A stretch of 64,000 nucleotides of DNA from Liolophura sinensis (Eukaryota; Mollusca; Polyplacophora; Chitonida; Chitonidae), in NCBI RefSeq assembly GCF_032854445.1, contig NC_088300.1, forward strand, positions 1,922,001 through 1,986,000, given 5' to 3'. Shown here in pieces: positions 1 to 64,000 of this stretch. Both the position numbers and the translations under genes were made by a program. Position 1 is the stretch's first letter; every line of letters begins with the position of its first letter. The notes beneath the pieces are model-generated. The model was not told the origin of the DNA, did not search any database, and saw only the letters and a list, made by a program, of their open reading frames with translations.

Positions 1-755
1 ACAAAGGCTGCATACCAAAGCTGCATACCAGCCTGAATACAAAGGCTGCATACCAAAGCTGCATACCAGCCTGAATACAAAGGCTGCATACCAAAGCTGC
101 ATACCAGCCTGAATACAAAGGCTGCATACCAAAGCTGCATACCAGCCTGAATACAAAGGCTGCATACCAAAGCTGCATACCAGCCTGAATACAAAGGCTG
201 CATACCAAAGCTGCATACCAGCCTGAACACAATGGCTGCATACCAAAGCTGCATACCAGCCTGAATACAAAGGCTGCATACCAAAGCTGCATTCCAGCCT
301 GAACACAAAGGCTGCATACCAAAGCTGCATACCAGCCTGAACACAATGGCTGCATACCAAAGCTGCATACCAGCCTGAACACAAAGGCTGCATACCAAAG
401 CTGCATTCCAGCCTGAACACAAAGGCTGCTTACCAAAGCTGCATACCAGCCTGAATACAAAGGCTGCATACCAAAGCTGCATACCAGCCTGAACACAAAG
501 GCTGCATACCAAAGCTGCATACCAGCCTGAACACAAAGGCTGCATACCAAAGCTGCATACCAGCCTGAATACAAAGGCTGCATACCAAAGCTGCATACCA
601 GCCTGAATACAAAGGCTGCATACCAAAGCTGCATACCAGCCTGAACACAAAGGCTGCATACCAAAGCTGCATACCAGCCTGAACACAATGGCTGCATACC
701 AAAGCTGCATACCAGCCTGAATACAAAGGCTGCATACCAAAGCTGCATACCAGCA
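1..755. repeat. 38-bp minisatellite at left edge
   Basis: About 20 head-to-tail copies of a 38-bp unit (aaaggctgcatacc followed by aaagctgcataccagcctga), with a few point variants such as gaacacaat for gaatacaaa. The array is cut by the window edge. It lies downstream of the last visible CEP128 exon and is probably inside the next intron of that gene. The repeat gives long stop-free frames on the minus strand, but 38 is not a multiple of 3 and the implied peptide is only the satellite read in rotating frames. I do not regard it as coding. Confidence 0.95.
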
Positions 756-782
756 ATAATAACAAGGTTATACCCATTTATA

Positions 783-905
783 ATATTTATTTACTTATTT
801 GATTTGTGTTTTACGCTGTACTCAAGAATATTTCAATTATATGCATTATGGTGGGATGAAACCGGGCAGAGCCTGGGGAAACCCATGACCATCTGCAGGT
901 ATGCT
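783..905 (+). repeat. Dispersed element, family A copy 1
   Basis: A T-rich head (ttatttacttatttgatt) leads into a core reading tttacg, ctgtactcaagaatatttca, cattatggtggga and accgggcagagcctgggg. The same order of blocks recurs at 16034-16165 and, in reverse orientation, at 9640-9765, so this is an interspersed repeat and not a tandem one. It has no coding capacity. A SINE-like or MITE-like element is likely, but no terminal repeats or Pol III boxes were confirmed. Confidence 0.6.
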
Positions 906-1196
906 AATACTTTTATCTTCTCTTGATCATCTATTTATTTATCTCACCAGTTTTCTAACAAAGATTATTTAATTAATTTTGTATCACACAGATTTACGGA
1001 AAGGGAACACTTAAATCTTGACAAAGCCTTAATAACCTTTTCAATACAAAGGCAGTTTATCCTATCCCCACACCACATGGACATGAAATGGTATTGTAGC
1101 CTTGTAGAGATGTGGTAGTAGACATGTGATAGCTGAGACTCCCATATCTCCATCACACCCACCTGCATCCCCACTCCGACTCCATCAATGACCTAC

Positions 1197-4100
1197 CAGA
1201 ATGTCACCCATTTCCCGGCGTATGTTCTCCAGCTGCACAGTAGCTGCACTTCCATGCTGTTTGATGTTTTCTAGCTCCTTGACCAGGTGTTCATTCCTCT
1301 GCATCATCTGTGAAGCGCTGTGTTTGTGGCGGTCTGCGTCTCTCTCTACCTGTTTACACTTCATCTTCCATCTGGCCGCAAACAATAACAGATACACCTT
1401 AGGCTGTTGTACAAATAGAAAACTTTTCTAGTTTTCTATAAAGTCCAAAATAAAATTATTTCATTGCAGCCAAAACATCTGGAAAATGTTAAGTTCGTAA
1501 CTAGTGCAAGTGAACTGGTTAACCCAGGAACTGCACTCAGAAAACTGACTGCCAAGTGAGTAATTTATCTGAAGGGTGTTTAACGTCTTTCTCACAAATT
1601 GTTCACAAACAGAACTCTGGGTCGGCTGACGGGCAGGAGAAACTATAATACCCTGAGTAAGCCACCCACCGTGGCTAGCTACCTGACAAACCTCCTGGCC
1701 AGCTACCTGACAAACCTCCTGGCCAGCTACCTGACAAACCTCCTGACTTCAAGTTGCTGTTGAAAAACCCTTGTACTCCAGAAAAATTTTGAGAAAGGCA
1801 TCAAACAACAACCGAAAAAATGACAAGTGAAGCTGTCTGCTGTTGGTATTGACTTACTGTCTGACTGTCTCCTGAGCTCTTCCCTTGAACTCCTCTTTCT
1901 TGCGCTCGCTCTCTGCCAGTGCCTGCTGTGTGACCCTCAGCTCATTAGACAGCCTCTCCACCTCCCGCGTGTACTCCTTCAGTCTCTGTAGGGCATCTTC
2001 AAGCTGAGTGGTCAGGTGAGACTTCTGACGGTTTGCTTCCTCAGACTTGTCAGACACCTCCTTCAGCTGGGTGATGTACTTTGCATTTTGCTTTTCACGG
2101 TTTTCCAGATCTTTTGTGAGGACCTGGAAAATGTGGCATGAAGTACTTTATCTCACCTTTTATTTACCCTTTATTTATCACTCGCTGTTTATTTCACTAA
2201 TTTTTATATCTCCCATTCAGGAATCCCCGTTAACAAACATTTTCAGTAAACAAATATTAAGAATGAAGCTCGTTAACAAAATTTGAGCTTCATTAAGATT
2301 GGTTTAGAAGATTAAGGCTGCAAACCTCGATGTGGTCTGAGAGCTGCGCCCTCTGTCTCTCGCTGCGCTCCACGCCTCGACGCAGGTCATCCACCTCACT
2401 GGTCATGCTCAGCGACTTTGACAGATGACCCCTCAGCTCGTTTATTTCTGACTGGAATCTCTGACGTTCTCTATCCTTCTCTTCTTCAACTACGTACAAA
2501 CAAAAAGATGAACTGTAAAATACATACCATCATACCAAAGAGAAGATGAAAACATTAACATGATCAATATGGTAAAATAATCACCATGATACAGTGTCAA
2601 CAATTCCACCATGCAAATTTCTGCAATTACCTTATAACATATCAACTGCTGTTCACTTGAGTGAAGCACAAAAGAAAGGGATTTATTGATCTGCAATTGT
2701 CTCATAACATATCAACTGCTGTTCATTTGAGTGAAGCACAAAAGAAAGGGATTTATTGATCTGCAATTGTCTCATAACATATCAACTGTTGTTCACTTGA
2801 GTGAAGCACAAAAGAAAGGGATTTATTGATCTGCAATTGTCTCATAACATATCACCTGCAATTCACTTGAGTGAAGCACAAAAGAAAGGGATTTATTGAT
2901 CTGCAATTGTCTCATAACATATCAACTGCTGTTCATTTGAGTGAAGCACAAAAGAAAGGGATTTATTGATCTGCAATTGTCTCATAACATATCAACTGCT
3001 GTTCACTTGAGTGAAGCACAAAAGAAAGGGATTTTTTGATCTGCAATTGTCTCATAACATATCAACTGTTGTTCACTTGAGTGAAGCACAAAAGAAAGGG
3101 ATTTATTGATCTGCAATTGTCTCATAACATATCAACTGCTGTTTACTTGAGTGTGGTACATAAGAAAGGGATTTATTGATGTTTTATGAGTGACTAGAGA
3201 ATTTTCACTTCTACAAATTTTATGGTCAGGGTGGAAGTAACCAGAGTGCCAGACATAAACCACCGTCTTTTGGGAAATGAGCTTTTCCACGTGAACTCGC
3301 ATGCCATAACATTGGTGGAAGACAGTTGGTCTTCAATGAAGGTAACACTACACAACAGGCACCACCGATTCATTATCATTACCTAGAGCAGAAGGAATCT
3401 ACAAAGTCCAGTTCTGCACTTCAAGTAAAACATTACATGTACTTCAGACAGCTGGATGTGTAGATAAGCTGTTATTTTTCTAACCTGTTCTCATTTTCCT
3501 CCGATCCCTCACATCTTCCTCCATACGACTTTCCGTCAGTTGTGACCGGATTTTGGACCTCTCCTCATCAGCTCGAGATAGCTGTAGTTTTAAATCGTCT
3601 ATCTGCAGAAAAAAAACCATAAACAATAACTCAACTGAAGACTAATATCCAAATCAACCAATCTGGCCAGAACTATCAAGGGATAGTTTAGTTCATCTAC
3701 CAGTAAATAAGTTCACATTTAATTTACTTATTTATTTGATTGTTGTTTTAATGCCATATTCTACCATTTTTCATCAGACAATTTTTCATCAGACAATTTT
3801 TCATCAGACAATTTTTCATCAGACAATTTTTCACCAGGATGATGGTAGTCAATTTTTGGAGTGATGGAAAGCAGTGGGTCTGGCATAAACAATCAAAAAA
3901 TCACTGGCAAGTGTTATGCGGACAAATGGCGTTCAAGGAATGTTACAGTGTATCACAGCCGTACCAGTGTCATCAACAGATCAAGTGTCCCCGAAGTCCC
4001 CCATACAGTGACAGCGGGGAAATATCACAGCCCCACCAGCATCGTCAATCGCTTAAGTGTCATGAAGTCCCCCATACAATGACAGCAGGGAAATATCACA

Positions 4101-7100
4101 GCCACACCAGCATTGTCAACTGCTTTAGCGTCATGAAGTCCCCCATACAGTGACAGCAGGGAAATGTACACATTTCCTGTCCAAGGCCAGGATTGATTGT
4201 GCAAGAAACTACAAGATGATGACGGGTTAACAATGAACATTTAATCCTTCATTATTACAATAAATATCATAGCATAATCAGAATGAAAATGCTACAACAT
4301 GTGAAACAGATATGTAGGTATAGCGTTCTTTTGTTTAAACAGATACTGGCTCAAGGTACAAAGACAAGCACTTACCTGTTGCTGAAGTGCTGACTTCCCA
4401 CCTTCACTATGATCTAGCTTTCTCTTGACATGGTCGAGTTCAGACTCAAGCTGTAAACATCAACACAAGATGATGAGTTTAGGAAATGCTTTGTCCTTAG
4501 TACCCAAAAACCTCCAGCAAACATAATGAAGAAATAACACCAGTTAAACATAGACACCTCACCAACTCTTGCATCTACATGTTTTTCTCCATTTTACTCC
4601 GACAAACCATGACATTCAGCATAGCGGCAATAAACGTAGAAATTCTTACCCAGCACAAGAGATTCTCCTCTCTGTGAAAGAGAGGTGCACTCTCCTAACA
4701 TACTATTATAAAACTGTATTATGTTTCCTTGCATTAAGGACCTCTGTGTACAAAATACCCCAGCTAGTTGAGCAATATCAATAACCTGCACTCGATCCGA
4801 TTTTTTCCATCAGGGGCGGTAACAAGGGTTCAGACACAACTCCAGATGAATCCCACACATTGTCTTACCCTGTGTCTGATAGACTCTGACTGTAATAGCT
4901 GACTCTTCATCTTCCAGTCCTCAGGGGCGGGCTGAGTGGGAGGAGCTAGAGGTGGAGCCTGGAGCTGACTGTGTAGAGCCTTCAAAGACAGGACATAAAA
5001 CTGCTGATTGACATTGATGCAAGATTTGATTGATGGATGAACAGTTACCTGTCAATAATTGACAAGAATTTCAAGAGGGGCATTCGTCTTTGACTTTCAT
5101 TTCTTATGAAGCTACATGTATGCTACACAATATGGTGCTATTTCAGCTACTGGCATGAAAACAGTGGCAAAAAGACTATAAAACAAAATGACACAAACTA
5201 ATGTGCTTTCACAGCAGAATTTGACAATTAGTTTAAACATTCAGTAATTTTTTGGTCCCAAGTAGTGTTAATGTAACTACATGGGAGCAACAAATCTAGA
5301 GGAGATGTGAAAATAAAACAAAATGCCACAGACAGTCCTATATCTGTTTTAGCTCTGACAAGATGTGCCGACCTGTTTTAGCTCTGATGAGATGGTACCT
5401 ACCTGTTCTAGCTCTCACAAGCTGGTGCTTACCTGTTTCAGCTCGAACGACAAGCTGCCCACCTGTTTTAACTATGACGGGATTTTATCTCTGATGATTT
5501 GGTGCCTATGTTTAGCTCTGACAAGTTGGTGCATATGTTTTAACTTTGAAAAGTTGGTGCCTACCTGTTTTAGCTCTAGCGAAATGATGCCTACCTGTTT
5601 TAGCTTTGATAAGATGATGCCTACCTGCTTTAGCTCTGATGAGATGGTGCCTACCTGTTTTAGCTGTAATAAGATGATGCCTACCTATGTTAGCTCTGCC
5701 TAGATGATGCCTACCTGTTTTAGCTCTGATGAGATGGTGCCTACTTGTTTTAGCTATGATGAGATGGTGTATACCTGCTTTAACTCTGACGAGACGGTCC
5801 ATACCTGTTTTAGTTCTGAGGAGATGGTTCCCACTTCATCAAATTTCCTATCCATCATCCTGCGCTCTGCTAACAGATCATTTTGTAGCGACTGCAGGCG
5901 TCTTTCCACACTGGATGATACCTACAAAAACAACACTACTCCATCAGCACGTGGATTTTTAGCCATTGATAAAGAAGAGCAGGTACGCCCTAACAGTCAT
6001 TCATTTTCCTATTACCTCACACATCAGAAAATCCTGTTAGCAACTACAATGCTGGGGATAAAAATCTTTACAATTATGGTGCTAATAATGGGGAGTTAGT
6101 TCCGTGTAACGTTATAACATCTTGTGACCCTTGAACAAACGGCTCATTCTTGGCTAAACTACACCTGCATCATTAAATCTTTCATAGACAGACTGATCTG
6201 GTAACACAAGTCAGCATTGAGTACAGACACAAGAACCAATAAAACTTGTACAAATAATTGTGTAGAAACAACTTACTGGATCTATTGCTACATGTGTCCT
6301 CAGTCCTTCTGATATGTCCCGTAAACTTCTTCTGGTATCAAAATCATCCCTACAAAACATATTATTACATCCTGGCATTACATGTTTCATACGTCATGGC
6401 CATAATCATGCCCATATTTCACCAAACCAGGTCTAAAACATTGAAAGGTAAATTAAGGATACAAAAACACTGTGATGTAAGAATTGATATGATCTGTTTC
6501 TTCACATTGGCTTAAAACTTATGATTTGTGTCAACTGAAACATGCACCCAAATTGCTAAAAAAGGAACCAAGAAATGAATGTAAGAATTTCTCAGCTTGT
6601 GTACTTCATAGTTAGCCAGAATGGTCAGTTTAGATACAAAAGTCTCACCTGTCCCGTCTGTCCAGCTGTCGACTGAAGCTGTCCTCTAAAGTCACCTGAT
6701 TGTGAGACAGATCTCGCACTGACTGGTGAAGGTCATGCAGTTCTCGGTTCATGTCATCGGCAAAGCGTACAGATCCTGACTTCTTCTTGCGTCGTGTTGG
6801 CGACTCCACATCGCTCTATTGGAAAAGACGTAACTACTTTTTTTACCAGTATCTGCAACACATCTTGTAATATTCCCTAGATCCATGCTCTCATTTTACA
6901 CAATCTTTGTGATCCCACTTAATGACAGATGTCTAAGATCTCCTGTGATCAGAAATGCTTTCCGTATTCCTCTCAGTACTCAGTTTAAGCACAACAGTAA
7001 GTGACCACATTAACAACTGATTCATGGCTAACCACAAACACTAATACGTACTCACAGATCGCAAGTCATATGTACTGTACATGTAGTTTAACTGAAGTTT

Positions 7101-15772: not shown

Positions 15773-15773
15773 A

Positions 15774-18523: not shown

Positions 18524-26630
<8,107 letters not shown>

Positions 26631-32900: not shown

Positions 32901-35900
32901 CTATTGCTAGTCTTTGGTACCTGGTCAATTGTAAATGATACCTGGCAATCTAGGGTTCAAATCTAGTAAATTCCTTTCCACTTTTTTTTTTTTCATGTCC
33001 TAATATCATGACCTATATAGACACTTGGCTACCAGAAGTGGTAAAAGTCTACTAGCATGGATCCAGGCAACTCTGTTGGATAACAGTTTTAGTTTAACTG
33101 GCTTTAGCCAGGTGTATTTATTTGGATAAAAGGGTGAAATTTCTCATCAAGCTGATCATACCAGACAGAAGTCAGACAAGTCTAGTAGCATTATCACAAA
33201 AACATCTGAATGTAAAACATGAACATTAGAAGCAGATTGTTCACTACCGACACATTTCCAAATAGCATGTATGCTGTGCACAACGCTTACCTTAATGAAG
33301 TACCGAAGGTCAGAGGGCACCAGCAGTACATGTGGGTTGACGGGAAGCCTGGCATACAGCTCAAGTTTGTCATAGTCAATGTTCACTTCCTCTGACGGAG
33401 GATTCAGCGGGTAATAACTACAACAAAACACTACAATGTACACGACTGTATAGAATTCTGATCTACTATGAAGGGTTGATTAATTATCTACACTAGCAAT
33501 ACTGAACTGGTACAACAGGTGTAAAACCATGTCTCACACCTTAGTTATTATCAAATGCTTACTTTTCAGCCTCATTTTCCAATAATTATACTCTGAATTG
33601 TGTTCAATGAGACATGTGAAGAATGAGTGAATGAATGATTATGGCTTAAAGCCACATCGGCAATATTTCAGCCATGTCGTGGCGAGAACAAAGTGAAAAC
33701 ACGAGACAGTTACGGTTTTCGATACAATAGTGTGAACATCAAAAGTAAAACAAAAAGTACAGACATGTTTAAAATCAGATAAAAAAGAAAAATAAGAGTT
33801 AAAACTCGAAAACCAGCATACTGTCAAAACAGTTTATCTAGAAATCTATATGTATGTAACTGTTTATCTATAGATATTTACGACAATTAAAATTTATATT
33901 TTATTATATAGGCCAATGGCCTTCAAATAATTTATGACAACATCGCCAGCGATGCTCTCAAATAATTCATATATAGAGTTGACTGTGTAGAAGACATATG
34001 AAAAACATTTATGTAAAGATAAGTTTGAAGATACATTTAAAGAAGGATCCTACTTACTAATGGGAACTGTAAAGGTTTCGTGTTTCAAGTGACAAATCCA
34101 GTACAAAACTATCCATTACTGGGCACGGACAAATTTTTTGGTGAAACATTTAGCTGATCTTTTTCAGGGGTTTTTCTCCAGATGACCATGTCATATTTCA
34201 GAGGTCCCATAAACATTGACACTTTTAACCACAATGGACTTGCTCCGCTTGTTAATAATTGTCCGTAAATCATATTAGAAAATATGTACCAAGAAACAGC
34301 ATTTGTTCGCACTATCTTCATGATGTGTATATTTACAAACCATTCACCACATGTATCAAACCTTCACCATTCTCTATGGAAATGTCTCCTATTTCCATTT
34401 ATTGATCTATTGTTTCACGCCACTGTAAAAAATGTTTCTCGAAACCAGGCAAAAATGACCATTTGCAGGTTGATGACAGGAAATGTTTTCTATAATTGCA
34501 TACCCAGAGGGTCCACTGTAGTGAAGGCTTTTGCTTACCTGTGTTGAGTGAGCAAGTGCTTGGCTAATCTGCCCAGTCTGTCTGAGGAACCTGAAGGTCT
34601 GAGGGAAGGAAAACAGGAGACCAATAATGTGAAGCCTGACCTTGGACACGATCGTTCCCTATTGGTTACAGTATCCACAGCAAACAAGAATGGCTTAAAT
34701 TGTACCTTACCTCTGAACAGACACACGTAATATCCTACTGGGAGATTTACCTTGCATACACAGTATAGTACAATATTTCATCGCACAACATTACTAGGAG
34801 AATGTACTTCCGTCTCACTCAGAGATTTCCTCTTCAAGTACAGTACAATACTTTACTGCACAACTCATTGCCAACATACTTCCTACTCACCCAGAGATTT
34901 CTTCTCCACTCAGGTGTAACAATACATCTGTGGAAGTGAGACCTATGACTGTGTTGTTCACCCTCAGTGTGCATGGGTCACTCACAAACCTCACGTGTTT
35001 GTGCTGGAGCAGAAAACATTACCTATGTCATCAATATGCCACAGGAAGTATGTACCTCATGGCACTGCATACTCCGATTGATTCCTTCATTTTGTAAAAT
35101 ACACATACAATATTTCTCCACGCTCCTGACTTTATATTGTATACTACCTGTATGATAGTGCAAGAAAACACAAGTAAACATTAACAATACAGTTTTCCTT
35201 TATAACAGTGCACGTTTGTAGGTTACTGACTGAATACAGGCTCATGTGAATGGGTTCTAATACTGTGCTGCAATCAGACGTGATTAAACAACCAGCTCAT
35301 GCCTCTGCCATGAACTCTGACACAAAAACTTCTACATATATAAAAAAACAGACATTGTAACATCCAATGCCATGGTATTGTCTATTAGTGATGTGCAATA
35401 TGAATGTTGCTAATGGCGACATACATCAAACATACGCAATCAAGATCTCGTTTAAAGACGAGCAAAACTGTGGAAGGTGTAAAATAAATTTATTTATTGC
35501 ATTCCAAGCTCAACAATGATAGAGGGCCTAATTACAGTCCACTACCTTTGAGTTCATTCTGAATGGTGGCTGTGGGTACACATAGTCATGGTGAACATCT
35601 CTTTGTGAGGGAACGACTACAACTTCACACTGTATTCTGTAACACAAACACATAAAGATCCTCTTTACTGTGAAAACCAGACATACATGTATCCCTCCAA
35701 TTACAGCTTCTTATAGGCCAGGGGAACAGACTCATTAAACAGGCATTTAACAACAGTGCGCTATAACAGAGTGTCAATGTCCTGAAAGGATTTGATTCGA
35801 TTAACACAGTGACTGAGTAAATCAATTGTTTACCAAATTTCTAATTTGTATTCAAATGAATATGTCTGTATCTGCAGCCATGTTGCCTTGTTTATTTACT

Positions 35901-38900
35901 TGCATGACTTTATTATTGTCTGAGTTAATGAATTTGGTGGACAAGTGGGATGAGATGACGTTGCCCAAGGTTGAGGGTTGTGATGCCAGTATTTTCTGAG
36001 GCCTCTGTCTCTGATTTTTGACATGTTTTTTATTTTGTTTGTCTACCTTTGCGTCAGAATGCTTATTTCATCCATTTTCCTTTGGAAAACTTCTTCAAAA
36101 GTGGTTTCCAAAGTTCCTTTCTGAAAAATAAAAGAGACAAAAATTAGCAAATAGGGGTTTAGCGCAAAAAATAATAATAATAATAATAATTAACAACCAA
36201 AAGACTATTCATTCTTTATTTGCTTTCAGTTTCTGGCACACGTGAAGCACTATCAAGCTTAACAATGGCTGCAAGTCTGATCAATTACCTATATAAAATA
36301 TCACAGAGAACAGCAAGTTTGACAGCAATACATTTCCTTACCTCAACTTCTTCATTCTTAGAATCAACAAATGGACCCATCTGTGGAAATAAGTGGAAAT
36401 AAGCGGAAATGAGGAGATATCTGGGCAACTTGTCTTACTAACATCACACAAATGAATCATCTAGGTTCTAATGTTATATAGATACAGAGTACTTTCCACA
36501 GAATATAAAGGTTCAATGGTTGTAAACAGAGTACTGTTCACAGATTATAAAGCTTACCATGGTTGTAAACAGAGTACTGTCCACAGAATGTAAAGTTTAC
36601 AATGGTTGTAAACAGAGTACTGTCCAGATTATAAAGCTTACCATGGTTGTAAACAGAGTACTGTCCACAGAATATAAAGGTTCAATGGTTGTAAACAGAG
36701 TACTGTCCACAGATTATAAAGCTTACCATGGTTGTAAACAGAGTACTGTCCACAGAATGTAAAGTTTACAATGGTTGCAAACAGAGTACTGTCCAGATTA
36801 TAAAGCTTACCATGGTTGTAAACAGAGTACTTTCCACAGAATATAAAGGTTCAATGGTTGTAAACAGAGTACTGTCCACAGATTATAAAGCTTACCATGG
36901 TTGTAAACAGAGTACTTTCCACAGAATATAAAGGTTCAATGGTTGTAAACAGAGTACTGTCCACAGAATATAAAGCTTACAATGGTTGTAAACAGAGTAC
37001 TGTCCACAGAATGTAAAGGTTCAATGGTTGTAAACAGAGTACTGTCCACAGAATGTAAAGGTTCAATGGTTGTAAACAGAGTACTGTCCACAGATTATAA
37101 AGCTTACCATGGTTGTAAACAGAGTACTTTCCACAGAATATAAAGGTTCAATGGTTGTAAACAGAGTACTGTCCACAGAATATAAAGCTTACAATGGTTG
37201 TAAACAGAGTACTGTCCACAGAATGTAAAGGTTCAATGGTTGTAAACAGAGTACTGTCCACAGATTATAAAGCTTACCATGGTTGTAAACAGAGTACTTT
37301 CCACAGAATATAAAGGTTCAATGGTTGTAAACAGAGTACTGTCCACAGAATATAAAGCTTATAATGGTTGTAAACAGAGTACTGTCCACAGAATATGAAG
37401 GTTCAATGGTTGTAAACAGAGTACTGTCCACAGAATATAAAGCTTACCATGGTTGTAAACAGAGTACTGTCCACAGAATATAAAGGTTCAATGGTTGTAA
37501 ACAGAGTACTGTCCACAGATTATAAAGCTTACCATGGTTGTAAACAGAGTACTGTCCACAGAATGTAAAGTTTACCATGGTTGTAAACAGAGTACTGTCC
37601 AGATTATAAAGCTTACCATGGTTGTAAACAGAGTACTTTCCACAGAATATAAAGGTTCAATGGTTGTAAACAGAGTACTGTCCACAGATTATAAAGCTTA
37701 CCATGGTTGTAAACAGAGTACTTTCCACAGAATATAAAGGTTCAATGGTTGTAAACAGAGTACTGTCCACAGAATATAAAGCTTACAATGGTTGTAAACA
37801 GAGTACTGTCCACAGAATGTAAAGGTTCAATGGTTGTAAACAGAGTACTGTCCACAGATTATAAAGCTTACCATGGTTGTAAACAGAGTACTTTCCACAG
37901 AATATAAAGGTTCAATGGTTGTAAACAGAGTACTGTCCACAGAATATAAAGCTTACAATGGTTGTAAACAGAGTACTGTCCACAGAATATGAAGGTTCAA
38001 TGGTTGTAAACAGAGTACTGTCCACAGATTATAAAGCTTACCATGGTTGTAAACAGAGTACTTTCCACAGAATATAAAGCTTACCATGGTTGTAAACAGA
38101 GTACTGTCCACAGAATATAAAGTTTACAATGGTTGTAAACAGAGTACTTTCCACAGAATATAAAGCTTACCATGGTTGTAAACAGAATACTGTCCACAGA
38201 ATATAAAGCTTACCATGGTTGTAAACAGAGTACTGTCCACAGAATATAAAGGTTCAATGGTTGTAAACAGAGTGCTGTCCACAGAATATAAAGCTTACCA
38301 TGGTTGTAAACAGAGTACTTTCCACAGAATATAAAGGTTCAATGGTTGTAAACAGAGTACTGTCTACAGAATGTAAAGGTTCAATGGTTGTAAACAGAGT
38401 ACTGTCCACAGAATATAAAGGTTCAATAATGGTTGTAAACAGAGTACTTTCCACAGATTATAAAGCTTACCATGGTTGTAAACAGAGTACTGTCCACAGA
38501 ATATAAAGGTTCAATGGTTGTAAACAGAGAATTTTGACTGGCAAGTCACATTTACATTTACTTTAACCACTCAGTTTCCATTCAGATCCTCACCAGTATG
38601 AGTAGGTGTGGCTGGTCTCTCTGTAAATACTTGTACAGGTCTCCCAAGGGTTCATACATCATGTTATCTGATGTGGAGAACGGGCCAGTGGCCACCATAA
38701 CATTCACAACCTCATCTGCAATACCACAAATTCATACGTCATGTTATCTGATGCGTAGAACGGGCCAGTGGCCACCATAACATTTACATCCTTACATGCA
38801 ATACCACAAATTCATACGTCATGTTATCTGATGCGTAGAATGGGCCAGTGGCCACCATAACATTTACATCCTTATATGCAATACCACAAATTCATACATC

Positions 38901-41900
38901 ATGTTATCTGATGCGAAGAACGGGCCAGTGGCCACCATAACATTTACATCCTTATATGCAATACCACAAATTCATACGTCATGTTATCTGATGTGTAGAA
39001 TGGGCCAGTGGCCACCATAACATTTACATCCTTATATGCAATACCACAAATTCATACATCATGTTATCTGATGCGTAGAACGGGCCAGTGGCCACCATAA
39101 CATTTACATCCTTATATGCAATACAACAAATTCATACATCATGTTATCTGATGCGTAGAACGGGCCAGTGGCCACCGTAACATTTACATCCTTATATGCA
39201 ATACCACAAATTCATACGTCATGTTATCTGATGTGTAGAACGGGCCAGTGGCCACCATAACATTTACATCCTCATCTGCAATACCACAAATTCATACGTC
39301 ATGTTATCTGATGTGTAGAATGGGCCAGTGGCCACCATAACATTTACATCCTTACATGCAATACCACAAATTCATACGTCATGTTATCTGATGTGTAGAA
39401 CGGGCCAGTGGCCACCATAATATTCACAACCTCATCTGCAATACCACAAATTCATATGTCATGTTATCTGATCCGTAGAACGGGCCAGTGGCCACCATAA
39501 CATTTACATCCTTATATGCAATACCACAAATTCATACGTCATGTTATCTGATGTGTAGAACAGGCCAGTGGCCACCATAACATTTACGTCCTTATATGCA
39601 ATACAACAAACTTATTACTGGTTTTGTTCACAGATACATGTACTCTTACCTAGATTTTGTGTTTGCTATACAGTGAGTCAATGGTATGAAGACTTCTCTA
39701 AACTTTTTGGCATTTCTAAATCTTTGCATTATACTAATAACGACCTGGCAAAGAGTTTTATATTCAAACATGTTAATACATATTATTTACTTAACACTTC
39801 AATTGTCTGATCAAGTCAGGGACAGTATCAATATCTTTTCCATTTTAACATGTACAACACATATATAGAAGACATCTTAAACAAGCAGTAACAGCACATC
39901 ATAAACATACCAGCTTCAATCTTGACAGCTTTCTCAGGCTGGGGTGGGGGCACTCCCTACAAAACAAGAACAAATATTTCTATACCTAACATATTACTTC
40001 AGTGAAAATTTCACAAAGACCAGCCATATTTTGTTTACGTTGGCAGTAAATCACTGAATGCGCGTAAGTTGCTTGTGCTTTGACGAGATGAAACATCACA
40101 CGACAAGGTAATTAGGGGCACATTTGTCACATGAAGTTCTCACCTTGTGAAGTTTTCTGGTCACAAACTTCTGGCCTGTGATATTTATACCATCAAAAGC
40201 CACAACCTGTGAAACAAGCCAAAATAGTTCATAAAGTACTATTTGGATATAAAATCTTTACCAAAACATTTGGCCCTTTACCAAAACATTCCAATTTTTG
40301 ATCACATACTTACTAGTCTGAACTCAGCAAATGAGATGTCATGAGGAAATAGGTTAGCTCTATGTATGGTCAGGTTGAAGCACTCTATAATCTCAAAATA
40401 ACCCACATCAATGTGGCTATATTGTTTAACTTATACCTGTACTAGTTCACCTTTGGTGAAGAATGACTGATTCAACATATATTTTGAAACTACCTTCTCA
40501 TCTTTAGATGAGGTAAACTGAACAGGAAAATTTTTATTCAACTTTGATTATGTACAGAAGTCGTCATCTGTGAATACAGATGCACGCTGATGAATCACAT
40601 TAACAAATAGAATGGTCTACTCGGTACAATACCACAAATAGAATGGTCTACTCAGTACAATACCACAAATAGAATGGTCTACTCGGTACAATACCACAAA
40701 CGGAACTTCATGAATATATACACGTATATACAACATGTACATTTACAGAAAATCACAGAATTACAGAAACGGTGGTATTTTTACCTGGCCAGGAAACAGT
40801 GAATACTCTTTGAGCTCGGAGAGGTCAATGGGTATACACCTGCCTGCCGAAGTTTCCCTGGAGCCCTCCAGTACCACAGACTTGGCATTGAGTTTACCTT
40901 GACTATCACAGCAGATTCTACCACACACAGTCACTTCATCCTGGAACGTGTACATTGTTATATCATACTCCGGAACATGATTGCTGTAATCATGGACATA
41001 TATCGCTTGACAGTCATACTCTGATACACAGTATATATTTCCCATTTTCTTTTCTAAAATTGAAATCAGAAGAGATCCGCTAGTGTTTCAATGCAATACT
41101 CAAAAATTTTTCACCTTCATGAGTGCAGGTATGGCTGCACTACCCAGAGTAAAGCCCTGACCTTCACCAAGTACTTATCAGACCCCCTGACATCAAGCTG
41201 CAGTTAAACATGTCACCTCTCATGTGAAATGCTAACGAATTCCACCTGGATGCCATTTTGACGCTCAGCCAACGATGATTCTTATGGAGAGACTGTCCCA
41301 ACAAACCTGATGATTTCGATGATATAGACATAATAGTTACAAACATGTTACAGTCCTTTTGAGAAACACACAAATGTCACCATTACCTGTACAGGCAATG
41401 CCACATGTGAGAACTCCTCTATCTTGTGGTGAGTCTGAAGGTACTGTGCCAGCTCCTCTACCCCATCATTTAGCACTGCAGACATCAAAACAGAACAAAG
41501 AAGCATACAGTCATATAAATACAGTACCTGGCTGCTATCACAGGTGGACAACCAAAAGGGATTCACTTGTTCTGCTGAATTCAGAGATAGCATTAACTTG
41601 CTGAGCTGAATTCAGCAATAGCATTAACTTGTTGCGCTGAATTCAGTAAAAGCATTAACTTGTTGTGCTGAATTCAGTGATAGCATTAACTTGTGCTGAA
41701 TTCAGCAATAGCATTAACTTGTTGCACTGAATTCAGCAATAGCATTAACTTGTTGCGCTGAATTCAGCAATAGCATTAACTTGTTGCGCTGAATTCAGTG
41801 ACAGCATTAACTCGTTAAAATCAATTATCTGTGTATGTGAGACCGGATATATTGCTTCATGAAATACTAAAAAAGGACCAGAAATTAAGTAAGCCTTTTG

Positions 41901-56400: not shown

Positions 56401-59400
56401 CCACCATCAGGAGCTTTATCAGTGTGGTCACATGGTCATGGTGCTGTTTCAGTGCTGCTTCAGTGCTGCCATCAGGCTCTTTATCAGTGTGGTCACATGG
56501 TTACGGTGCTGGCTCACTTCCACCATCAGGAGCTTTATCAATGTGGTCACATCATCACTCACATGTTATAATGCTACTTTCACTGTTAGGTCTGCAGCTA
56601 TACATCAGGTGATATGTCATGTGGAGGCCTGTGGTTTACACCGTGTGCATGTCGCTGGTGGAGGCCTGTGGTTTACACTGTGTGCATGTCGCTGGTGGAG
56701 GCCTGTGGTTTATGCCGTGTGCGTGTTGCTGGTGGAGGCCTGTGGTTTACGCCGTGTGCATGTTGCTGGTGGAGGCCTGTGGTTTACGCCGTGTGCATGT
56801 CGCTGGTGAAGGCCTGTGGTTTACACCAAGCTCTCTGCTTTCTTCCACCCATTATACACATGACTGCCCTCATATAAATGAAAAATTTTGATTACCAAAC
56901 CTAGATTCTTCTAGATGTGCTATTACTTTTTCAGGTTTGTTACCTTGTAATATCCCTAGTGTAACTCTCAGTCCAATAGCCCCTGACAGTAAAAATGAGG
57001 TATTGGTGGGAGGTGCCAAACCTGGGAGCCCCACCCCTCTTAATGTTGGGGAGACCAAAGTGGAGGTGGAGGTGACCTCAGCAGATTGCTCAAACAAACA
57101 GGTCAGGTGTACTGTATAGCTGCTGTCATGAAAATTGTGTTGAAACATCAGGCTGCTTGAATTAATAACACGGCTATATACAAATTTTTCTCTTTCATCT
57201 TTTTTGTCTAACTTGTCTGTAATTTTCTACAGTCTGTAAAGTTTAACTTATATTAATTGATCATTTACTGAAGAACATTTATGACAGTGGGCGGTTTTAT
57301 GGTTGGCTGAGTACAGAGCCCTGGGATATCCAAAATATACCTCATAAGGTATCTAACAATTGTATGTATTCTGAGCTATGTTTGTTGGATTTCTGTCAGT
57401 CCCTTTGTTGAAAAATTTCCAACAGTCTTTGTGTTTTAATTTGTACTTTTTCAGACCTACGTTGTTCATATAACCAAAAAGCTGCTTCCTCGACTGGTGA
57501 AGTTTACGTCTTCTGAATTGGCCACCTCATTTGAGTGTCCAATCTCCCTCAGCCCGTACTACTGTCCAGTGTCCATACGAGGAAGTGACCCAAAGCATAC
57601 CTTCTCACGTCCATTAATCGATGAAATGACCCGAACCTCTAAGATTGACCCATTAAGTGGAGAACCTCTAGGCCCAGACTGGAAGGTCATTGAGTATGAC
57701 ATTGAAAAAAAGATGTCTGCTTCCACAGTGTCTATACCTTTGACATATGGAGGTAAATTCATGGTGTATGTAAGTGGGGAAGTGTCCTTTGTACATCTTT
57801 GATATGGGAATGTCCTATATACATCACAGGTATGGGGATGTTCTATATACATCAAGGGTATGGGAATGTCCTACATACATCACAGGTATGGGAATGTCCT
57901 ACATACATCACAGGTATGGGAATGTCCTACATACACCATGGGTGTAGGAATGTCCTATATACATCACAGGTATGGGAATGTCCTATATACATCACAGGTA
58001 TGGGAATGTTCTATATACATCACAGGTATGTGAATGTCCTACATACATCACAGGTATGGGAATGTCCTACATACATCATGGGTGTAGGAATGTCCTATAT
58101 ACATCACAGGTATGGGAATGTCCTATATACATCACAGGTATGGGGTGTTCTATATACATCACAGGTATGTGAATGTCCTACATACATCACAGGTATGGGG
58201 TGTTCTATATACATCACAGGTATGTGAATGTCCTACATACATCACAGGCATGGGAATGTCCTACATACACCATGGGTGTAGGAATGTCCTATATACATCA
58301 TGGGTGTAGGAATGTCCTACATACATCACAGGTATGGGAATGTCCTACATACACCATGGGTGTAGGAATGTCCTATATACATCATGGGTGTAGGAATGTC
58401 CTATATACATCACAGGTATGGGAATGTCCTATATACATCACAGGTATGTGAATGTCCTACATGCATCACAGGTATGGGAATGTCCTACATACACCATGGG
58501 TGTAGGAATGTCCTATATACATCATGGGTGTAGGAATGTCCTATATACATCACAGGTATGGGAATGTCCTATATACATCACAGGTATGGGGTGTTCTATA
58601 TACATCACAGGGATGTGAATGTCCTATATACATCACAGGTATGGGAATGTCCTACAAACATCACAGGTATGGAAATGTCCTACATACATCATGGGTGTAG
58701 GAATGTCCTATATATATCACAGGTATGGGAATGTTCTATATACATCACAGGTATGTGAATGTCCTACATACATCATAGGTATGGGAATGTCCTACATACA
58801 CCATGGGTGTAGGAATGTCCTATATACATCACAGGTATGGGAATGTCCTATATACATCACAGGTATGGGGTGTTCTATATACATCACGGGGATGTGAATG
58901 TCCTATATACATCACAGGTATGTGAATGTCCTACATACATCACAGGTATGTGAATGTCCTACATACATCACAGGTATGGGAATGTCCTATATACATCACA
59001 GGTATGGGAATGTCCTATATACATCACAGGTATGGGAATGTCCTACATACATCATGGGTGTAGGAATGTCCTATATACATCGCAGGTATGGGAATGACCC
59101 ATATACATCACAGGTATGGGAATGTCCTATATACATCACAGGTATGGGAATGTCCTATATACATCACAGGTATGGGAATGTCCTATATACATCAAAGGTA
59201 TGGGAATATCCTATATACATCACAGGTGTGAAAATGTCCTAAATACATCACAGGTGTGGAAATGTCCTAAATACATCACAGGTGTGGGAATGTCCTATAT
59301 ACATCACAGGCGTGGTAATTTCCTATATACATCACAGATGTGGAAATGCCCTACACACATCACAGGTGTGGGAACATCCTATATACATCACAGGTGTGGA

Positions 59401-60560
59401 AGTGCCATGTATAAATCACATTTGTGGGATTGTTTTAAGTAGACCACAGATGTGAAAATGTCTTATATACACGATAGGTGTGGAAGTGTGCTATACACAC
59501 TATAGGTGTGGAAGTGTGCTATACACACAACAGGTGTCGGAATGTCCTATTTACACCACAGGTGTAGAGATGTCCTATGCACATCACAGGTGTGGGAATG
59601 TTCTATATACATCACAGGTGTGGGAGTGTTCTGTATACACAACAAGTGTGGGAATGCCCTATATACACCACAGGTGAGGAAGTGTCCTGTACAGATCACA
59701 GTTGTGGGAGTGTTCTATATACACAACAGGTGTGGGAATCCCCTTATACACCACAGGTGCAGAAGTGTCATATGCACATCACAGGTGTGGAAGTGTCCTA
59801 TTTACAGCACAGGTGTGGAAGTGTCCTGTACACATCATACATGTAGGTGTGGGAATGTCCTGTATGCAGGACAGGTGTGGAAGTGTCTTATATACATCAC
59901 AGATGTGGAATGTTCACAGGTCAATGACGCTTCTTCGGGAAACTTTTTGGGTCATCTCTCAAACACTTTGAATGGTGAACACTTGTCTGGAGAAGTTCTC
60001 CGACGGTCTGCCAGATTCTCCTGAATGCTGTTCATGTCGCATGAGGGAGACATATTTCCCAACAAGGTATTCAGGTTTGCTTGTTTCGCGGGTCGCACTT
60101 TCAGGGCTCATCAGGGGATTGCATGTACTTGGTATGCATGCGTCTGTACTGTACCACCCCAAATGGTGTCACAGGGCACCTCTCGACATGCTTACATGGG
60201 GCCAGGACTTTCTAGCAATGCATGTCCAGGATCAGGGACGTGTACAAGTGCAGGGATACTGGGCTTCAGGGGCTCACGGGGATGGCACGGGGCCCATCCA
60301 TGTTCATCAGCTCCTGGTTGTGTTGTGGTACCTCTTCTGCCATCAGCACAGGTTCATCCGCCGGGATTTCCAGGTCGACTGCAGGATCCTCCACACTCTT
60401 GTGTGTGAGGTTTCTTGAGGCGACAGGCTCTGTGCACCTGCCTCACGGGGTCACCACAATGGTGCCGATCCATCTCACTGTTCCACACCACCTGTGAAGT
60501 GTTCATTGATCTGAACAAAGATGACGGTCTGCCATTTGTAGTTTCTAGAGCATCTGTCAC
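47440..60560 (+). CDS. Cadherin-like beta-sandwich and U-box-like domain protein, 5 exons seen (3' end off window)
   Basis: I do not recognise a named orthologue. Exons: 47440-47601, 51443-51647, 56935-57101, 57455-57752, 60410-60560; phases agree and give 327 residues so far, ending in a split Thr codon. Two tandem domains resemble the Cadherin-like beta-sandwich family (Pfam Cadherin-like_b). The first (about 5-93) runs LEKLSVKPGILSPVF, ITDYSVTVA, then VTAEDGTTKFYSI. The second (about 98-188) runs ATLSSLTISHGDLSPAFSPD, VTEYY, then VGETKVEVEVTSAD. Residues 204-270 look like a U-box: FECPISLSP, then HTFSRPLIDE, then TSKIDPLSGEPL. This suggests an E2-binding ubiquitin ligase module, though the family's function here is inference. 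The last exon is Cys-rich (ALCTC, PQWC) and ends FVVSRASV. There is no signal peptide, so the beta-sandwich domains are probably intracellular. Exon 5 is the least certain: its acceptor (tcttgtgtgtgag) is modest, but phase and codon quality support it. Confidence 0.75.
48132..49446 (+). CDS. Possible nested two-exon gene, unknown function
   Basis: Inside intron 1 of the cadherin-like/U-box gene, same strand. Exon 48132-48457 opens with ATG and encodes 108 residues (start MWTTIQDCIDEAKLWLP; later FQIGVFVYFKGLDP, LHRVFHEGKRGRWYCAHKVV and RRLQWIIGES), ending at a consensus donor CAGAT/GTAAGT. A second piece at 49314-49446 can follow in phase and adds 44 residues including PESSSQVELK before a TGA; its acceptor is mediocre. 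The residue mix (Trp, Arg and hydrophobic, few low-complexity runs) looks protein-like, and the frame is cleaner than others nearby. A 177-codon frame on the opposite strand overlaps exon 1 and looks like its shadow. It could also be a chance frame or a gene fragment. No family recognised. Confidence 0.38.
48538..48610. repeat. 18-bp tandem repeat
   Basis: Four imperfect copies of gatgccaaccatttaaga. The multiple-of-3 length gives a repeated WHLLNG-type peptide on the minus strand that is not taken as coding. Confidence 0.85.
49965..50370. mobile_element. Foldback or MITE-like element
   Basis: The left end reads tttgattgattgattcgtat with tttaattccgtgctcag. The right end reads ttaaacaacaatcaaataaa, whose complement begins tttgattgttgtttaa. 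The two ends are thus imperfect inverted repeats about 0.4 kb apart around a noncoding interior that includes ccggaggttggtggtttatg. Such ends suggest a small nonautonomous element. No target duplication was established. Confidence 0.35.
50680..51325. repeat. Minisatellite of about 59 bp in intron 1 of the cadherin-like/U-box gene
   Basis: Eleven copies of a unit containing tgattttttattttttggat, tcaagactactaat and aataatcatactagtcataa. Two subtypes alternate (aattaattataatc and aatcagtaataatc). It ends about 120 bp before exon 2. Confidence 0.95.
51665..54870. repeat. 65-bp minisatellite in intron 2 of the cadherin-like/U-box gene
   Basis: About 49 copies of a unit containing atggtacaagatgctgttga, taactaattagagaggaatc and agggtatgctcaggttactg. 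It starts about 20-40 bp after the exon 2 donor. Many copies contain CAGGTTACTG, CAGGTGACTG or CAGGTGAGTG, that is CAG/GT donor-like sites. A weak resemblance between ggttactgtgtgtat and the exon 2 boundary (gtattactgtaagtctgtat) suggests, without proving, a boundary origin. Block duplications are visible (for example 51880-52110 against 52660-52880). Confidence 0.94.
54871..55925. other. Intron 2 remainder, no gene seen
   Basis: AT-rich sequence between two arrays, with a short (GT)n run near 55793-55809. No motif-bearing open frame and no RNA gene recognised. Confidence 0.6.
55930..56565. repeat. 54-bp minisatellite, long open frames in many registers
   Basis: Eleven to twelve copies of a 54-bp unit (tggtcacatggttacggtgc, tggctcactgccaccatcag, gagctttatcag). 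As 54 is 18 codons and the unit lacks stops in most registers, both strands show open frames of 170 to 300 codons. Copies vary at synonymous and nonsynonymous sites alike, there is no splice logic linking it to the exon at 56935, and it is followed by an unrelated array, so I call it noncoding satellite. Confidence 0.9.
56618..56830. repeat. 37-bp minisatellite
   Basis: Five copies of tgtggtttacaccgtgtgca followed by tgtcgctggtggaggcc, ending about 100 bp before exon 3 of the cadherin-like/U-box gene. Confidence 0.92.
57785..59915 (+). repeat. 28-bp array with a CAG/GT junction in each unit, intron 4
   Basis: About 75 copies of a 28-bp unit (gtatgggaatgtcctatata plus catcacag) begin about 35 bp after the exon 4 donor at 57752. 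Unit junctions read catcacag/gtatggg, which is at once a minimal acceptor (CAG) and a donor-like CAG/GTATGG. The intronic stretch just after the donor (ggggaagtgtcctttgtaca) resembles the unit, so the array seems to have grown from the 5' end of the intron. The right third (after about 59230) is more diverged, with aggtgtggaagtgtcc variants. Open frames of 65-172 codons inside it rotate with the repeat and are not genes. Confidence 0.94.
59930..60409. other. GC-richer, ORF-dense insert before exon 5
   Basis: Non-repetitive block between two arrays, clearly richer in G and C than its surroundings. It is open for 90-148 codons in overlapping plus-strand frames, and on the minus strand a frame includes VEDPAVDLEIPADEPVL. 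No frame joins in phase to the exon at 57752 without a stop, apart from one starting at the acceptor before 59903 that ends at a TGA at 60022. It may be a degenerate transposable element or an alternative terminal exon. I cannot choose between them. Confidence 0.35.
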
Positions 60561-63500
60561 GTAGGAGACGTGCAGGTTCTGCCGTGATCAATATGCCATT
60601 TGTAGCTTGTAGAGCATCTGTCACATAGGTGTCGTGCAGGTTTTGTCATGATCAGCCTGCCATTTGTAGCTTGTAGAGCATCGGTCACAAAGGTGCCATG
60701 CAGGTTCTGCCATGATCAATCTGCCATTTGTAGCTTGTAGAGCATCTGTCACATGGGTGTCGCACAGGTTCTGCCGTGATCAATCTGCCATTTGTAGCTT
60801 GTAGAGCATCTGTCACATAGGTGTTGTGCTGGTTCTGCCATGATCAATCTACCATTTGTAGCTTGTAGAGCATCGGTCACAAAGGTGCCATGCAGGTTCT
60901 GCCATGATCAATCTGCCATTTGTAGCTTGTAGAGCATCTGTCACATGGGTGTTGTGCTGGTTCTGCCATGATCAATCTACCATTTGTAGCTTGTAGAGCA
61001 TCTGTCACATAGGTGTTGTGCAGGTTTTGTCATGATGAGTCTGCCTTTTGTAGCTTGTAGAGCATCTGTCACATGGGTGTCGTACAGGTTCTGCCATGAT
61101 CAATCTACCATTTGTACCTTGTAGAGCATCTGTCAGATAGGTGTCATGCTGGTTCTGCCATGGTCAGTCTGCCATTTGTAGCTTGTAGAGCATCTGTCAG
61201 ATAGGTGTCATGCAGGTTCTGCCATGATCAGTCTGCCATTTGTAGCTTGTAGAGCATCTGTCACAAAGTTGTCATGCAAGTTCTGCCATGATCAGTCTGC
61301 CATTTGTAGCTTGTAGAGCATCTGTCACATAGGTGTCATGCAGGTTCTGCCATGATCAATCTGCCATTTATGGCTTGTAGAGCATCGGTCACAAAGCTGT
61401 CGTGCAGGTTCTGCCATGATCAATCTGCCATTTGTAGCTTGAAGAGCATCTGTCACATGGGTGTCGTACAGGTTCTGCCATGATTAATCTGCCATTTGTA
61501 ACTTCTAGAGCATCTGTCACATGGGTGTCGTACAGGTTCTGCCATGATCAATCTACCATTTGTAGCTTGTAGACCATCTGTCACAAAGGTGTCATGCGGT
61601 TCTGCCATGATCAGTCTGCCATTTGTAGCTTGTAGAGCATCTGTCACAAAGGTGTCATGCGGTTCTGCCATGATCAGTCTGCCATTTGTAGCTTGTAGAG
61701 CATCTGTCACAAAGGTGTCATGCAGGTTCTGCCATGATTAATCTGCCATTTGTAACTTCTAGAGCATCTGTCACATGGGTGTCGTACAGGTTCTGCCATG
61801 ATCAATCTACCATTTGTAGCTTGTAGAGCATCTGTCACATGGGTGTTGTGCTGGTTCTGCCATGATCAATCTACCATTTGTAGCTTGTAGAGCATCTGTC
61901 ACATGGGTGTTGTGCTGGTTCTGCCATGATCAATCTACCATTTGTAGCTTGTAGAGCATCTGTCACATAGGTGTCATGCAGGTTCTGCCATGATCAGTCT
62001 GCCATTTGTAGCTTGTAGAGCATCTGTCACAAAGGTGTCATGCGGTTCTGCCATGATCAGTCTGCCATTTGTAGCTTGTAGAGCATCTGTCACAAAGGTG
62101 TCATGCAGGTTCTGCCATGATTAATCTGCCATTTGTAGCTTCTAGAGCATCTGTCACATGGGTGTCGTACAGGTTCTGCCATGATCAATCTACCATTTGT
62201 AGCTTGTAGAGCATCTGTCACAAAGGTGTCATGCAGGTTCTGCCATGATTAATCTGCCATTTGTAACTTCTAGAGCATCTGTCACATGGGTGTCGTACAG
62301 GTTCTGCCATGATCAATCTACCATTTGTAGCTTGTAGAGCATCGGTCACAAAGGTGTCATGCAGGTTCTGCCATGATCAGTCTACCTTTTGTAACTTCTA
62401 GAGCATCTGTCACATGGGCGTTGTACAGGTTCTGCAATGATCAATCTACCATTTGTAGCTTGTAGAGCATCTGTCACATAGGTGTCATGCAGGTTCTGCC
62501 ATGATCAGTCTACCATTTGTAGCTTGTAGAGCATCTGTCACATAGGTGTCGTGCAGGTTTTGTCATGATCAGTCTGCCTTTTGTAGCTTGTAGAGAATCT
62601 GTCCCCCAGGTGACATGCAGGTTCTGCCATGATCAGTCTACCATTTGTAGCTTGTAGAGCATCTGTCACATTGGTGTCGTGCAGGTTTTGTCATGATCAG
62701 TCTGCCTTTTGTAGCTTGTAGAGAATCTGTCCCCCAGGTGACATGCAGGTTCTGCCATGATCAGTCTACCATTTGTAGCTTGTAGAGCATCTGTCACATA
62801 GGTGTCGTGCAGGTTTTGTCATGATCAGGCTGCCTTCTGTAGCTTGTAGAGAATCTGTCGCCCAGGTGACATGCAGGTTCTGCCATGATCAGTCTGCCAT
62901 TTGTAGCTTGTAGAGCATCTGTCACATAGGTGTCGTGCAGGTTCTGCCATGATCAGTCTGCCATTTGTAGCTTGTAGAGCATCTGTCACATAGGTGTCGT
63001 GCAGGTTCTGCCATGATCAGTCTACCATTTGTAGCTTGTAGAGCATCTGTCACATAGGTGTCGTGCAGGTTCTGCCATGATCAGTCTGCCATTTGTAGCT
63101 TGTAGAGCATCTGTCACATAGGTGTCATGCAGGTTCTGCCATGATCAGTCTGCCATTTGTACCTTGTAGAGCATCTGTCACATAGGTGTCATGCAGGTTC
63201 TGTCATGATCAGTCTACCATTTGTAGCTTGTAGAGCATCTGTCACATAGGTGTCGTGCAGGTTTTGTCATGATCAGTCTGCCTTTTGTAGCTTGTAGAGA
63301 ATCTGTCCCCCAGGTGACATGCAGGTTCTGCCATGATCAGTCTACCATTTGTAGCTTGTAGAGCATCGGTCACATAGGTGTCGTGCAGGTTTTGTCATGA
63401 TCAGTCTGCCTTTTGTAGCTTGTAGAGAATCTGTCCCCCAGGTGACATGCAGGTTCTGCCATGATCAATCTACTATTTGTAGCTTGTAGAGCATCTGTCA

Positions 63501-64000
63501 CATAGGTGTCGTGCAGGTTTTGTCATGATCAGCCTGCCATTTGTAGCTTGTAGAGCATCTGTCACATGGGTGTCGTACAGGTTCTGCCATGATCAATCTA
63601 CCATTTGTAGCTTGTAGAGCATCGGTCACATAGGTGTCATGCAGGTTCTGTCATGATCAATCTGCCATTTGTAGCTTGTAGAGCATCTGTCACATAGGTG
63701 TCGTGCAGGTTCTGTCATGATCAGTCTGCCTTTTGTAGCTTGTAGAGCATCTGTCACATGGGTGTCGTACAGGTTCTGCAATGATCAATCTACCATTTGT
63801 AGCTTGTAGAGCATCTGTCACATAGGTGTCATGCAGGTTTTGTCATGATCAGTCTGCCTTTTGTAGCTTGTAGAGAATCTGTCCCCCAGGTGACATGCAG
63901 GTTCTGCCATGATCAGTCTACCATTTGTAGCTTGTAGAGCATCAGTTACATAGGTGTCGTGCAGGTTTTGTTATGATCAGCCTGCCATTTGTAGCTTGTA
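60561..64000 (+). repeat. 64-bp array built from the 3' end and donor of exon 5
   Basis: About 54 copies of a 63-64 bp unit run from the exon 5 donor to the window edge. Exon 5 ends CTGCCATTTGTAGTTTC, TAGAGCATCTGTCAC and the intron begins GTAGGAGACGTGCAGG. The copies read ctgccatttgtagcttgtag, agcatctgtcac, then ataggtgtcgtgcagg and ttctgccatgatcagt. About 38 nt of each unit is exon and 26 nt is intron. The boundary GT appears only at the real exon; the copies have AT, AA or other bases there (cacatag, cacaaag, cacatgg, cccccag). Confidence 0.93.

What the first reader, a model, noticed from the sequence alone, without database searches (positions are those of the whole stretch)
1..64000. Exon-edge minisatellites: intronic arrays whose unit is a piece of exon plus its splice site
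Five large arrays and one small one, in all four genes, have units that align with the end of the adjacent exon and run across the splice junction: CEP128 exon 7 (30 bp), RAD51 exon 4 (62 bp), RAD51 exon 8 (58 bp), POLA2 exon 11 (80 bp, acceptor side), POLA2 exon 15 (three copies) and exon 5 of the cadherin-like/U-box gene (64 bp). Independent units in four genes argue for a general mechanism in this genome, such as slippage or break repair that favours exon boundaries. Intronic minisatellites are well known, but I know of no description of a class systematically seeded at splice junctions.
Basis: partly seen in the sequence, partly recalled or inferred. Interest (0 to 1): 0.85.

Follow-up and report, generated by a model that had tools for sequence, protein, structure and literature searches.

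The report
Exon-edge tandem repeats in a chiton
In a chiton genome, a number of intron repeat arrays turn out to be head-to-tail copies of the edge of a neighbouring exon plus its splice site; arrays of this kind are already known from amphioxus as 'mirages', but here they recur across several genes and sit more often at the exon's downstream edge.

Summary
The genome is the chiton Liolophura japonica. Outside the window, 17 of 393 sampled exon edges lie in tandem units of the same build; in it, 5 of 79. The class is already described: amphioxus 'mirages' (passages).
Seeding at junctions is partly supported. Placed at random in their own introns, 4.1 of 52 arrays should cross an edge (4.9 with GC weighting); 11 do, 9 at donors (2.0-2.6 expected) and 2 at acceptors (2.0-2.3). 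A point control is weaker: 15/302 edges against 100/3010 intron points, p = 0.10, and the window alone shows no excess. Decoy donors in the copies mostly stay intact, decoy acceptors mostly do not (few arrays, post hoc).
Most likely: frequent random tandem duplication filtered by splicing, copies beyond a used donor being harmless and copies before an acceptor competing. The donor excess is not fully explained.

The parts
5344..5828 (-). 30-bp array reaching 24 bp into the coiled-coil ('CEP128') exon 5805-5921 at its donor; GT kept in 5 of 6 recognised copies
5805..5921 (-). coding exon whose 3' end is the outermost copy of the array
20493..20584 (+). RAD51 exon 4 (..[10 protein letters not shown])
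20548..21569 (+). 62-bp array, 16.5 copies; starts 37 bp inside exon 4; 15 of 15 recognised copies keep the donor GT
23194..23315 (+). RAD51 exon 8 (..[12 protein letters not shown])
23316..25827 (+). 58-bp array (TRF 23384-25827, 42 copies) plus degenerate copies next to the exon; donor GT is AT in 39 of 43 recognised copies
38594..38715 (-). POLA2 exon 11
38651..39610 (-). 80-bp array, 12 copies, acceptor side; reaches 65 bp into exon 11; acceptor CAG is CAT in 9 of 11 recognised copies
34891..35003 (-). POLA2 exon 15
34735..34907 (-). two to three degenerate copies of the exon 15 end plus donor, about 72 bp apart (limits approximate, third copy by eye)
60527..64000 (+). 64-bp array (continues about 753 bp past the window); claimed as exon-derived, NOT confirmed

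Best explanation
These are mirage-type minisatellites. Short segments (about 30-140 bp) are tandemly duplicated often in this chiton's introns and then grow into arrays. When a segment happens to straddle an exon edge, the exon keeps the copy next to the splice site in use and the further copies become intron. On the donor side such copies carry extra donors that lie downstream of the one used and are tolerated; on the acceptor side the copies carry extra acceptors upstream of the one used, which would compete, so these arrays are rarer and most of their acceptors are broken. SHOWN: the anatomy, its recurrence in other genes, the donor-side excess over random placement inside introns, intact coding frames of RAD51 and POLA2 across their arrays. 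INFERRED: random duplication as origin, tolerance of decoy donors, selection against decoy acceptors, splicing at the exon-proximal site.
For: Recurrence: 15 of 302 edges in 22 loci, window included, 7 of 148 in myosin exons, 0 of 22 in the remaining matches. Arrays without a scored edge are commoner (41 of 52) and lie evenly nearer donors and acceptors, 20:21. Exon part of the unit variable, 14-93 bp in nine arrays. Donors 16/237, acceptors 6/235. Donor GT kept in at least 80% of copies in 14 of 16 donor arrays; YAG kept in at least 80% of copies in 1 of 6 acceptor arrays. Of 273 points 45 bp inside exons 4 are hit, each of them in an edge array. Units of intronic arrays are GC-richer than introns (0.421 against 0.372) and so are donor edges (0.427), which predicts about 1.3-fold seeding at donors. 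Amphioxus mirages are reported not to disturb splicing (passages).
Against: Random seeding plus GC bias leaves 9 donor arrays against 2.6 expected, so it does not explain the donor side in full. The donor/acceptor contrast is p = 0.047 over all samples, not significant outside the window (12/197 against 5/196, p = 0.135), and absent in sample 2 (3/66 against 4/66). The decoy-acceptor pattern rests on six arrays and was noticed before it was tested; the one acceptor array of the myosin sample keeps its signal in both copies, and one donor array (RAD51 exon 8) has lost its GT. No RNA evidence was on hand.
Confidence: 0.55

Rival explanations
1. Exon 3' ends or 5' splice sites are hot spots where tandem duplications arise more often (for example through transcription-linked breaks, R-loops or recombination-prone sequence at the donor).
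For: Donor arrays 9 against 2.0 (2.6 GC-weighted) expected, P 0.0001-0.0007; outside the window 6 against 0.9-1.2. Point control: donors 2.65 times intron points, 95% CI 1.12-5.18. A further donor array was found at a VPS45-like exon that my models had missed. Among 41 intronic arrays without a scored edge the sense strand carries the better donor-like site in 26, p = 0.037 (three of the four best are parts of edge arrays or that missed exon).
Against: No clustering of breakpoints at the junction; acceptor edges are not enriched; numbers are small; the tolerance for joining an array to its edge was widened from 1.3 to 1.4 units after I had seen that one array was just missed (with 1.3 it is 10 of 52 against 4.1, P 0.004).
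Confidence: 0.25
2. Pure chance: arrays are so dense that some must cover exon edges; no preference at all.
For: Pooled edges 15/302 against 100/3010 intron points, one-sided p = 0.10; ratio 1.74, CI 0.90-2.96; window alone 4 of 19 against 2.3 expected, P 0.18; the earlier ungapped test gave 10 of 302 against 4.4-5.1 expected, P 0.037, and for the window 3 against 2.4.
Against: Array-level test within the same introns, P 0.0008 (0.005 with GC weighting); outside the window P 0.0009 (0.003).
Confidence: 0.17
3. The repeated donors have a use, such as extra U1 binding sites or regulated alternative exon ends.
For: In 9 of 16 donor arrays the median decoy scores at least as high as the real donor. 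In the CCT3-like gene the next decoy is 66 bp on, in frame and stop-free, so its use would add 22 residues.
Against: In 14 of 16 donor arrays the next decoy shifts the frame or no frame is open up to it; of the other two (both in the CCT3-like gene) one has a stop in the exon's own frame. RAD51 exon 8 keeps 4 of 43 GTs. Nothing here tests function.
Confidence: 0.03

Closest known systems
'Mirages': minisatellite-like tandem duplications of exon-intron boundaries in amphioxus (Adh, troponin C, globins BflGb6/BflGb9, PGBD5; retinol dehydrogenase and presenilin papers cited for similar loci). Passages of PMC3087553 and PMC3902484 seen; Canestro et al. 2002 not held
   Same: Tandem units spanning an exon edge, at either end of the exon, many but not all copies keeping splice signals; unit sizes overlap (10-160 bp there, about 30-140 bp here)
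   Different: Another phylum (Mollusca); up to 43 recognised copies; sampled over several gene families with controls; donor-side excess and donor/acceptor difference in decoy decay are not in the passages I read
Variable internal tandem repeats at exon-intron boundaries of human genes in segmental duplications (PMC2812944, passages)
   Same: Minisatellite units (about 30 bp) at an exon-intron boundary, with splice sites involved
   Different: There the repeats lie in exons and may turn into new introns; here the exon keeps one copy and an existing intron holds the rest
Intron gain by tandem genomic duplication of an AGGT-bearing exon piece (PMC3443670, passages)
   Same: Short tandem duplication that copies splice signals
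   Different: There a new intron is made inside an exon; here introns grow from their edge. The age of these introns was not tested
Ordinary intronic minisatellites
   Same: Most arrays in these introns show no exon edge (41 of 52)
   Different: No coding sequence or used splice site recognised in the unit

Membership tests
mirage minisatellite (amphioxus) | tandem units that span an exon-intron boundary | tested here: met
   22 of 472 edges examined
mirage minisatellite (amphioxus) | either boundary of an exon can be affected | tested here: met
   16 donor and 6 acceptor edges
mirage minisatellite (amphioxus) | many, not all, copies keep AG/GT signals | tested here: met
   GT in 89 of 132 copies, AG in 31 of 51
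mirage minisatellite (amphioxus) | copies at the array boundary left out of homogenisation | tested here: inconclusive
   RAD51 exon 8: exon 80% like the copies, copies 93% like their consensus; RAD51 exon 4 shows no such difference (84% and 82%)
mirage minisatellite (amphioxus) | regular splicing not disturbed | not testable with these tools
   no RNA; RAD51 and POLA2 frames are intact if the exon-proximal site is used
mirage minisatellite (amphioxus) | length instability between alleles or cells | not testable with these tools
   one assembly, no reads
intron gain by tandem duplication | intron is new at that position | not tested
   no related gene structures on hand

The most novel reading that the evidence does not exclude
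In this chiton 5' splice sites, and not acceptors, are preferred birthplaces of minisatellites, two to four times over intron DNA, so that introns grow in good part by tandem copying of the exon end that precedes them; and spliceosomes pass over a dozen or more equally strong donors downstream of the first.
Probability: 0.27. Interest if true: 0.7.

Novelty: new member of a known kind. Interest (0 to 1): 0.45.

Why it matters
It shows that boundary-spanning minisatellites, reported gene by gene in amphioxus, recur in a mollusc at a measurable rate (22 of 472 exon edges examined). Cases such as RAD51 exon 4, with 15 recognised copies of its donor in a row, are natural tests of how a spliceosome picks one donor among many, and the possible donor/acceptor difference makes first-AG scanning against donor choice testable with public RNA data.

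Tried and rejected
The first statistic (ungapped 41-mers) missed the RAD51 exon 4 and POLA2 exon 15 donors and carried one wrong donor (E0D), so it was replaced by gapped alignment with that donor set anew. Sliding a control along introns and placing arrays at random inside their own introns give different strength; both are reported. One search, which counted whole loci including intergenic DNA with a stricter margin, gave the smallest P (0.0002, down to 0.00007 for arrays of 4.5 or more copies) and I do not rely on it. Exon edges left out: three terminal donors in sample 1, 14 of 162 in the myosin sample (weak sites or ends of the domain), 4 of 26 in the last sample; one myosin edge with a score of exactly 20 was not counted. 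One array overlaps an acceptor by 4 bp only and was not scored as an edge array. HMM matches not sampled: three long open ones and three. Idea that the 30-bp array in the coiled-coil gene is coding: rejected, the exon's frame meets a stop in the array (no frame open to the recognised decoy). Sixth array as exon-derived: not supported. Papers: searches (open-licence library only); for most papers listed I saw the listing only. Of those opened, two amphioxus papers describe the class, PMC2812944 a related human case; the Daphnia tandem-repeat survey PMC3152781 has no match to 'splice', 'exon-intron', 'intron-exon' or 'exon boundar', passages of the C. elegans minisatellite paper PMC4039745 do not mention such units, and the comparative chiton paper PMC12005716 has no 'tandem repeat' or 'minisatellite' in its main text.

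Full report
Source. The window is G000:C6:1922001-1986000, an assembly of 609,464,459 bases in 632 contigs. The number of scaffolds, the longest (96,433,062) and seven other scaffold lengths seen equal those printed for the chiton Liolophura japonica (PMC11068029, passages); two scaffolds and the total differ by a few thousand bases. I take it to be that assembly. Names of genes in the other loci (CCT3-like, CCT5-like, VPS45-like and so on) are my recall on top of the Pfam family.

Observation. I set exon edges by reading splice sites and frames: 79 edges in the window (one of them, the acceptor after the 30-bp array, joins out of frame). For each edge I aligned the 50 bp centred on it to 600 bp on either side, requiring at least 10 bp matched on both sides of the edge. 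Over the window and 21 other loci, 15 edges of 302 score 22-50 and the others 15 or less. Five window edges are among the 15: RAD51 exons 4 and 8 (donors), the coiled-coil exon (donor), POLA2 exon 11 (acceptor), POLA2 exon 15 (donor, degenerate). The spliced RAD51 is colinear with PDB RAD51 homolog 1 without a gap, so the edges at both arrays are exact. The claimed cadherin/U-box exon 5 is not supported.

Independent samples. Sample 1: nine loci hit by the TCP1 family (47 of 50 matches; 91 edges after dropping three terminal donors); three of its arrays were first seen by eye. Sample 2: all 12 loci with at least three matches of Adaptin_N, Sec1 or Cullin within 15 kb, a rule written down before fetching (66 matches, 132 edges), although the match tables with their open-frame lengths had been seen. 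Sample 3: all 81 Myosin_head matches listed with 280 bp on each side (148 of 162 edges scored). Sample 4: the remaining matches except three long open ones (22 of 26 edges). Edges in tandem units: 3 of 91, 7 of 132, 7 of 148 and 0 of 22; with the window 22 of 472, donors 16 of 237 and acceptors 6 of 235. Examples: a CCT5-like exon ending ..AVSKAADK (109 bp), a CCT3-like exon ending ..GGGATEMALAQ (66/88 bp) and another edge in the same gene, a cullin exon (136 bp, 15.6 copies), a second cullin gene with a donor and an acceptor array. A further donor array of 81 bp and 27.5 copies lies at a VPS45-like exon that my models had missed; it is not in the counts.

Is it more than chance? Point control: walking into introns with arrays collapsed to one unit, 100 of 3010 intron points are hit against 15 of 302 edges, one-sided p = 0.10; ratio 1.74 (CI 0.90-2.96), donors 2.65 (1.12-5.18), acceptors 1.03 (0.24-2.33). 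Array control: each of 52 intronic arrays (period at least 20, at least 2.4 copies) is placed at random in its own intron; 10 cross an edge against 4.1 expected, P 0.004. After widening the tolerance for joining an array to its edge from 1.3 to 1.4 units, which admits one array seen by eye, it is 11, P 0.0008, or 0.005 when donors and acceptors are weighted for GC; donors 9 against 2.0 (2.6), acceptors 2 against 2.0 (2.3); outside the window 7 of 33 against 1.8 (2.2), P 0.0009 (0.003); window alone 4 of 19 against 2.3, P 0.18. So the window by itself would not have shown an excess; the other genes do, on the donor side. The donor/acceptor contrast is p = 0.047 over all samples and was noticed after sample 2; the later samples give 6/87 against 1/83, p = 0.12. 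One caveat would raise edges without any hot spot: the exon copy is held by selection, so old duplications stay recognisable longer at edges than inside introns (inference). It should affect acceptors as well, and large arrays little.

How it behaves. The exon part of the unit runs from 14 to 93 bp in nine arrays, as random breakpoints would give. Intronic arrays without a scored edge lie evenly nearer donors and acceptors, 20:21. Of 273 points 45 bp inside exons 4 are hit, each in an edge array. In donor arrays the GT is intact in 89 of 132 copies, and in 85 of 89 when RAD51 exon 8 (GT to AT in 39 of 43) is set aside; in acceptor arrays AG is intact in 31 of 51 and YAG in 20 of 51 (the sums for 85 of 89 and 20 of 51 are mine). 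From the divergence of the other bases one would expect about 100 of 132 and 40 of 51 for the two-base signals. By array, 14 of 16 against 1 of 6 keep the signal in at least 80% of copies, p = 0.004 (the 80% cut and the counts were chosen by me after seeing the copies). Copies are not independent, the pattern was seen before it was tested, and the one acceptor array of the myosin sample keeps its AG in both copies. Read with established splicing knowledge (the first suitable AG downstream of the branch point tends to be used; recalled), this fits tolerance of downstream donors and selection against upstream acceptors.

Known or new. Passages of two papers describe the same anatomy in amphioxus globin, Adh, troponin C and PGBD5 genes under the name mirages, report that splicing is not disturbed and that repeat number varies, and propose intron gain from them; the reference list names retinol dehydrogenase and presenilin papers. 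A human study reports variable tandem repeats at exon-intron boundaries of duplicated genes. New here, as far as the searches named in Tried and rejected go, are a mollusc, a rate over several gene families with controls, and the donor bias. I file it as a new member of a known kind.

Noticed in passing
window 1-64000: TRF arrays cover about a third of the window (about 22 kb by my sum), some with higher-order periods (43/85, 65/193/258).
   Followed up: partly
L024 962-3222: 81-bp array, 27.5 copies, starts at the donor of a VPS45-like exon (..DDQEVVREVQ|gtgagc) that the HMM match had missed.
   Followed up: partly
L006 1664-2518: CCT3-like exon-edge array: the next decoy donor is 66 bp on, in frame and without a stop, so its use would add 22 residues per copy.
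   Followed up: partly
window 59920-60520: Parts of the region before the 64-bp array have a 75-89% identical copy on C1 (6002896-6003541, minus strand); nature unknown.
   Followed up: no
window 57777-59913: 28-bp array beginning 25 bp after the donor of the exon 57455-57752, its consensus with a donor-like CAGGTATGG; not scored as exon-derived.
   Followed up: no
window 4869-5804: Exons of the coiled-coil gene on either side of the intron with the 30-bp array do not join in frame; a small exon or another acceptor is missing in my model.
   Followed up: no
L022, around 1691-1930 (minus strand, edge P3A): Two or three decayed copies of the exon start lie upstream of an adaptin exon, an old acceptor-side duplication.
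   Followed up: partly
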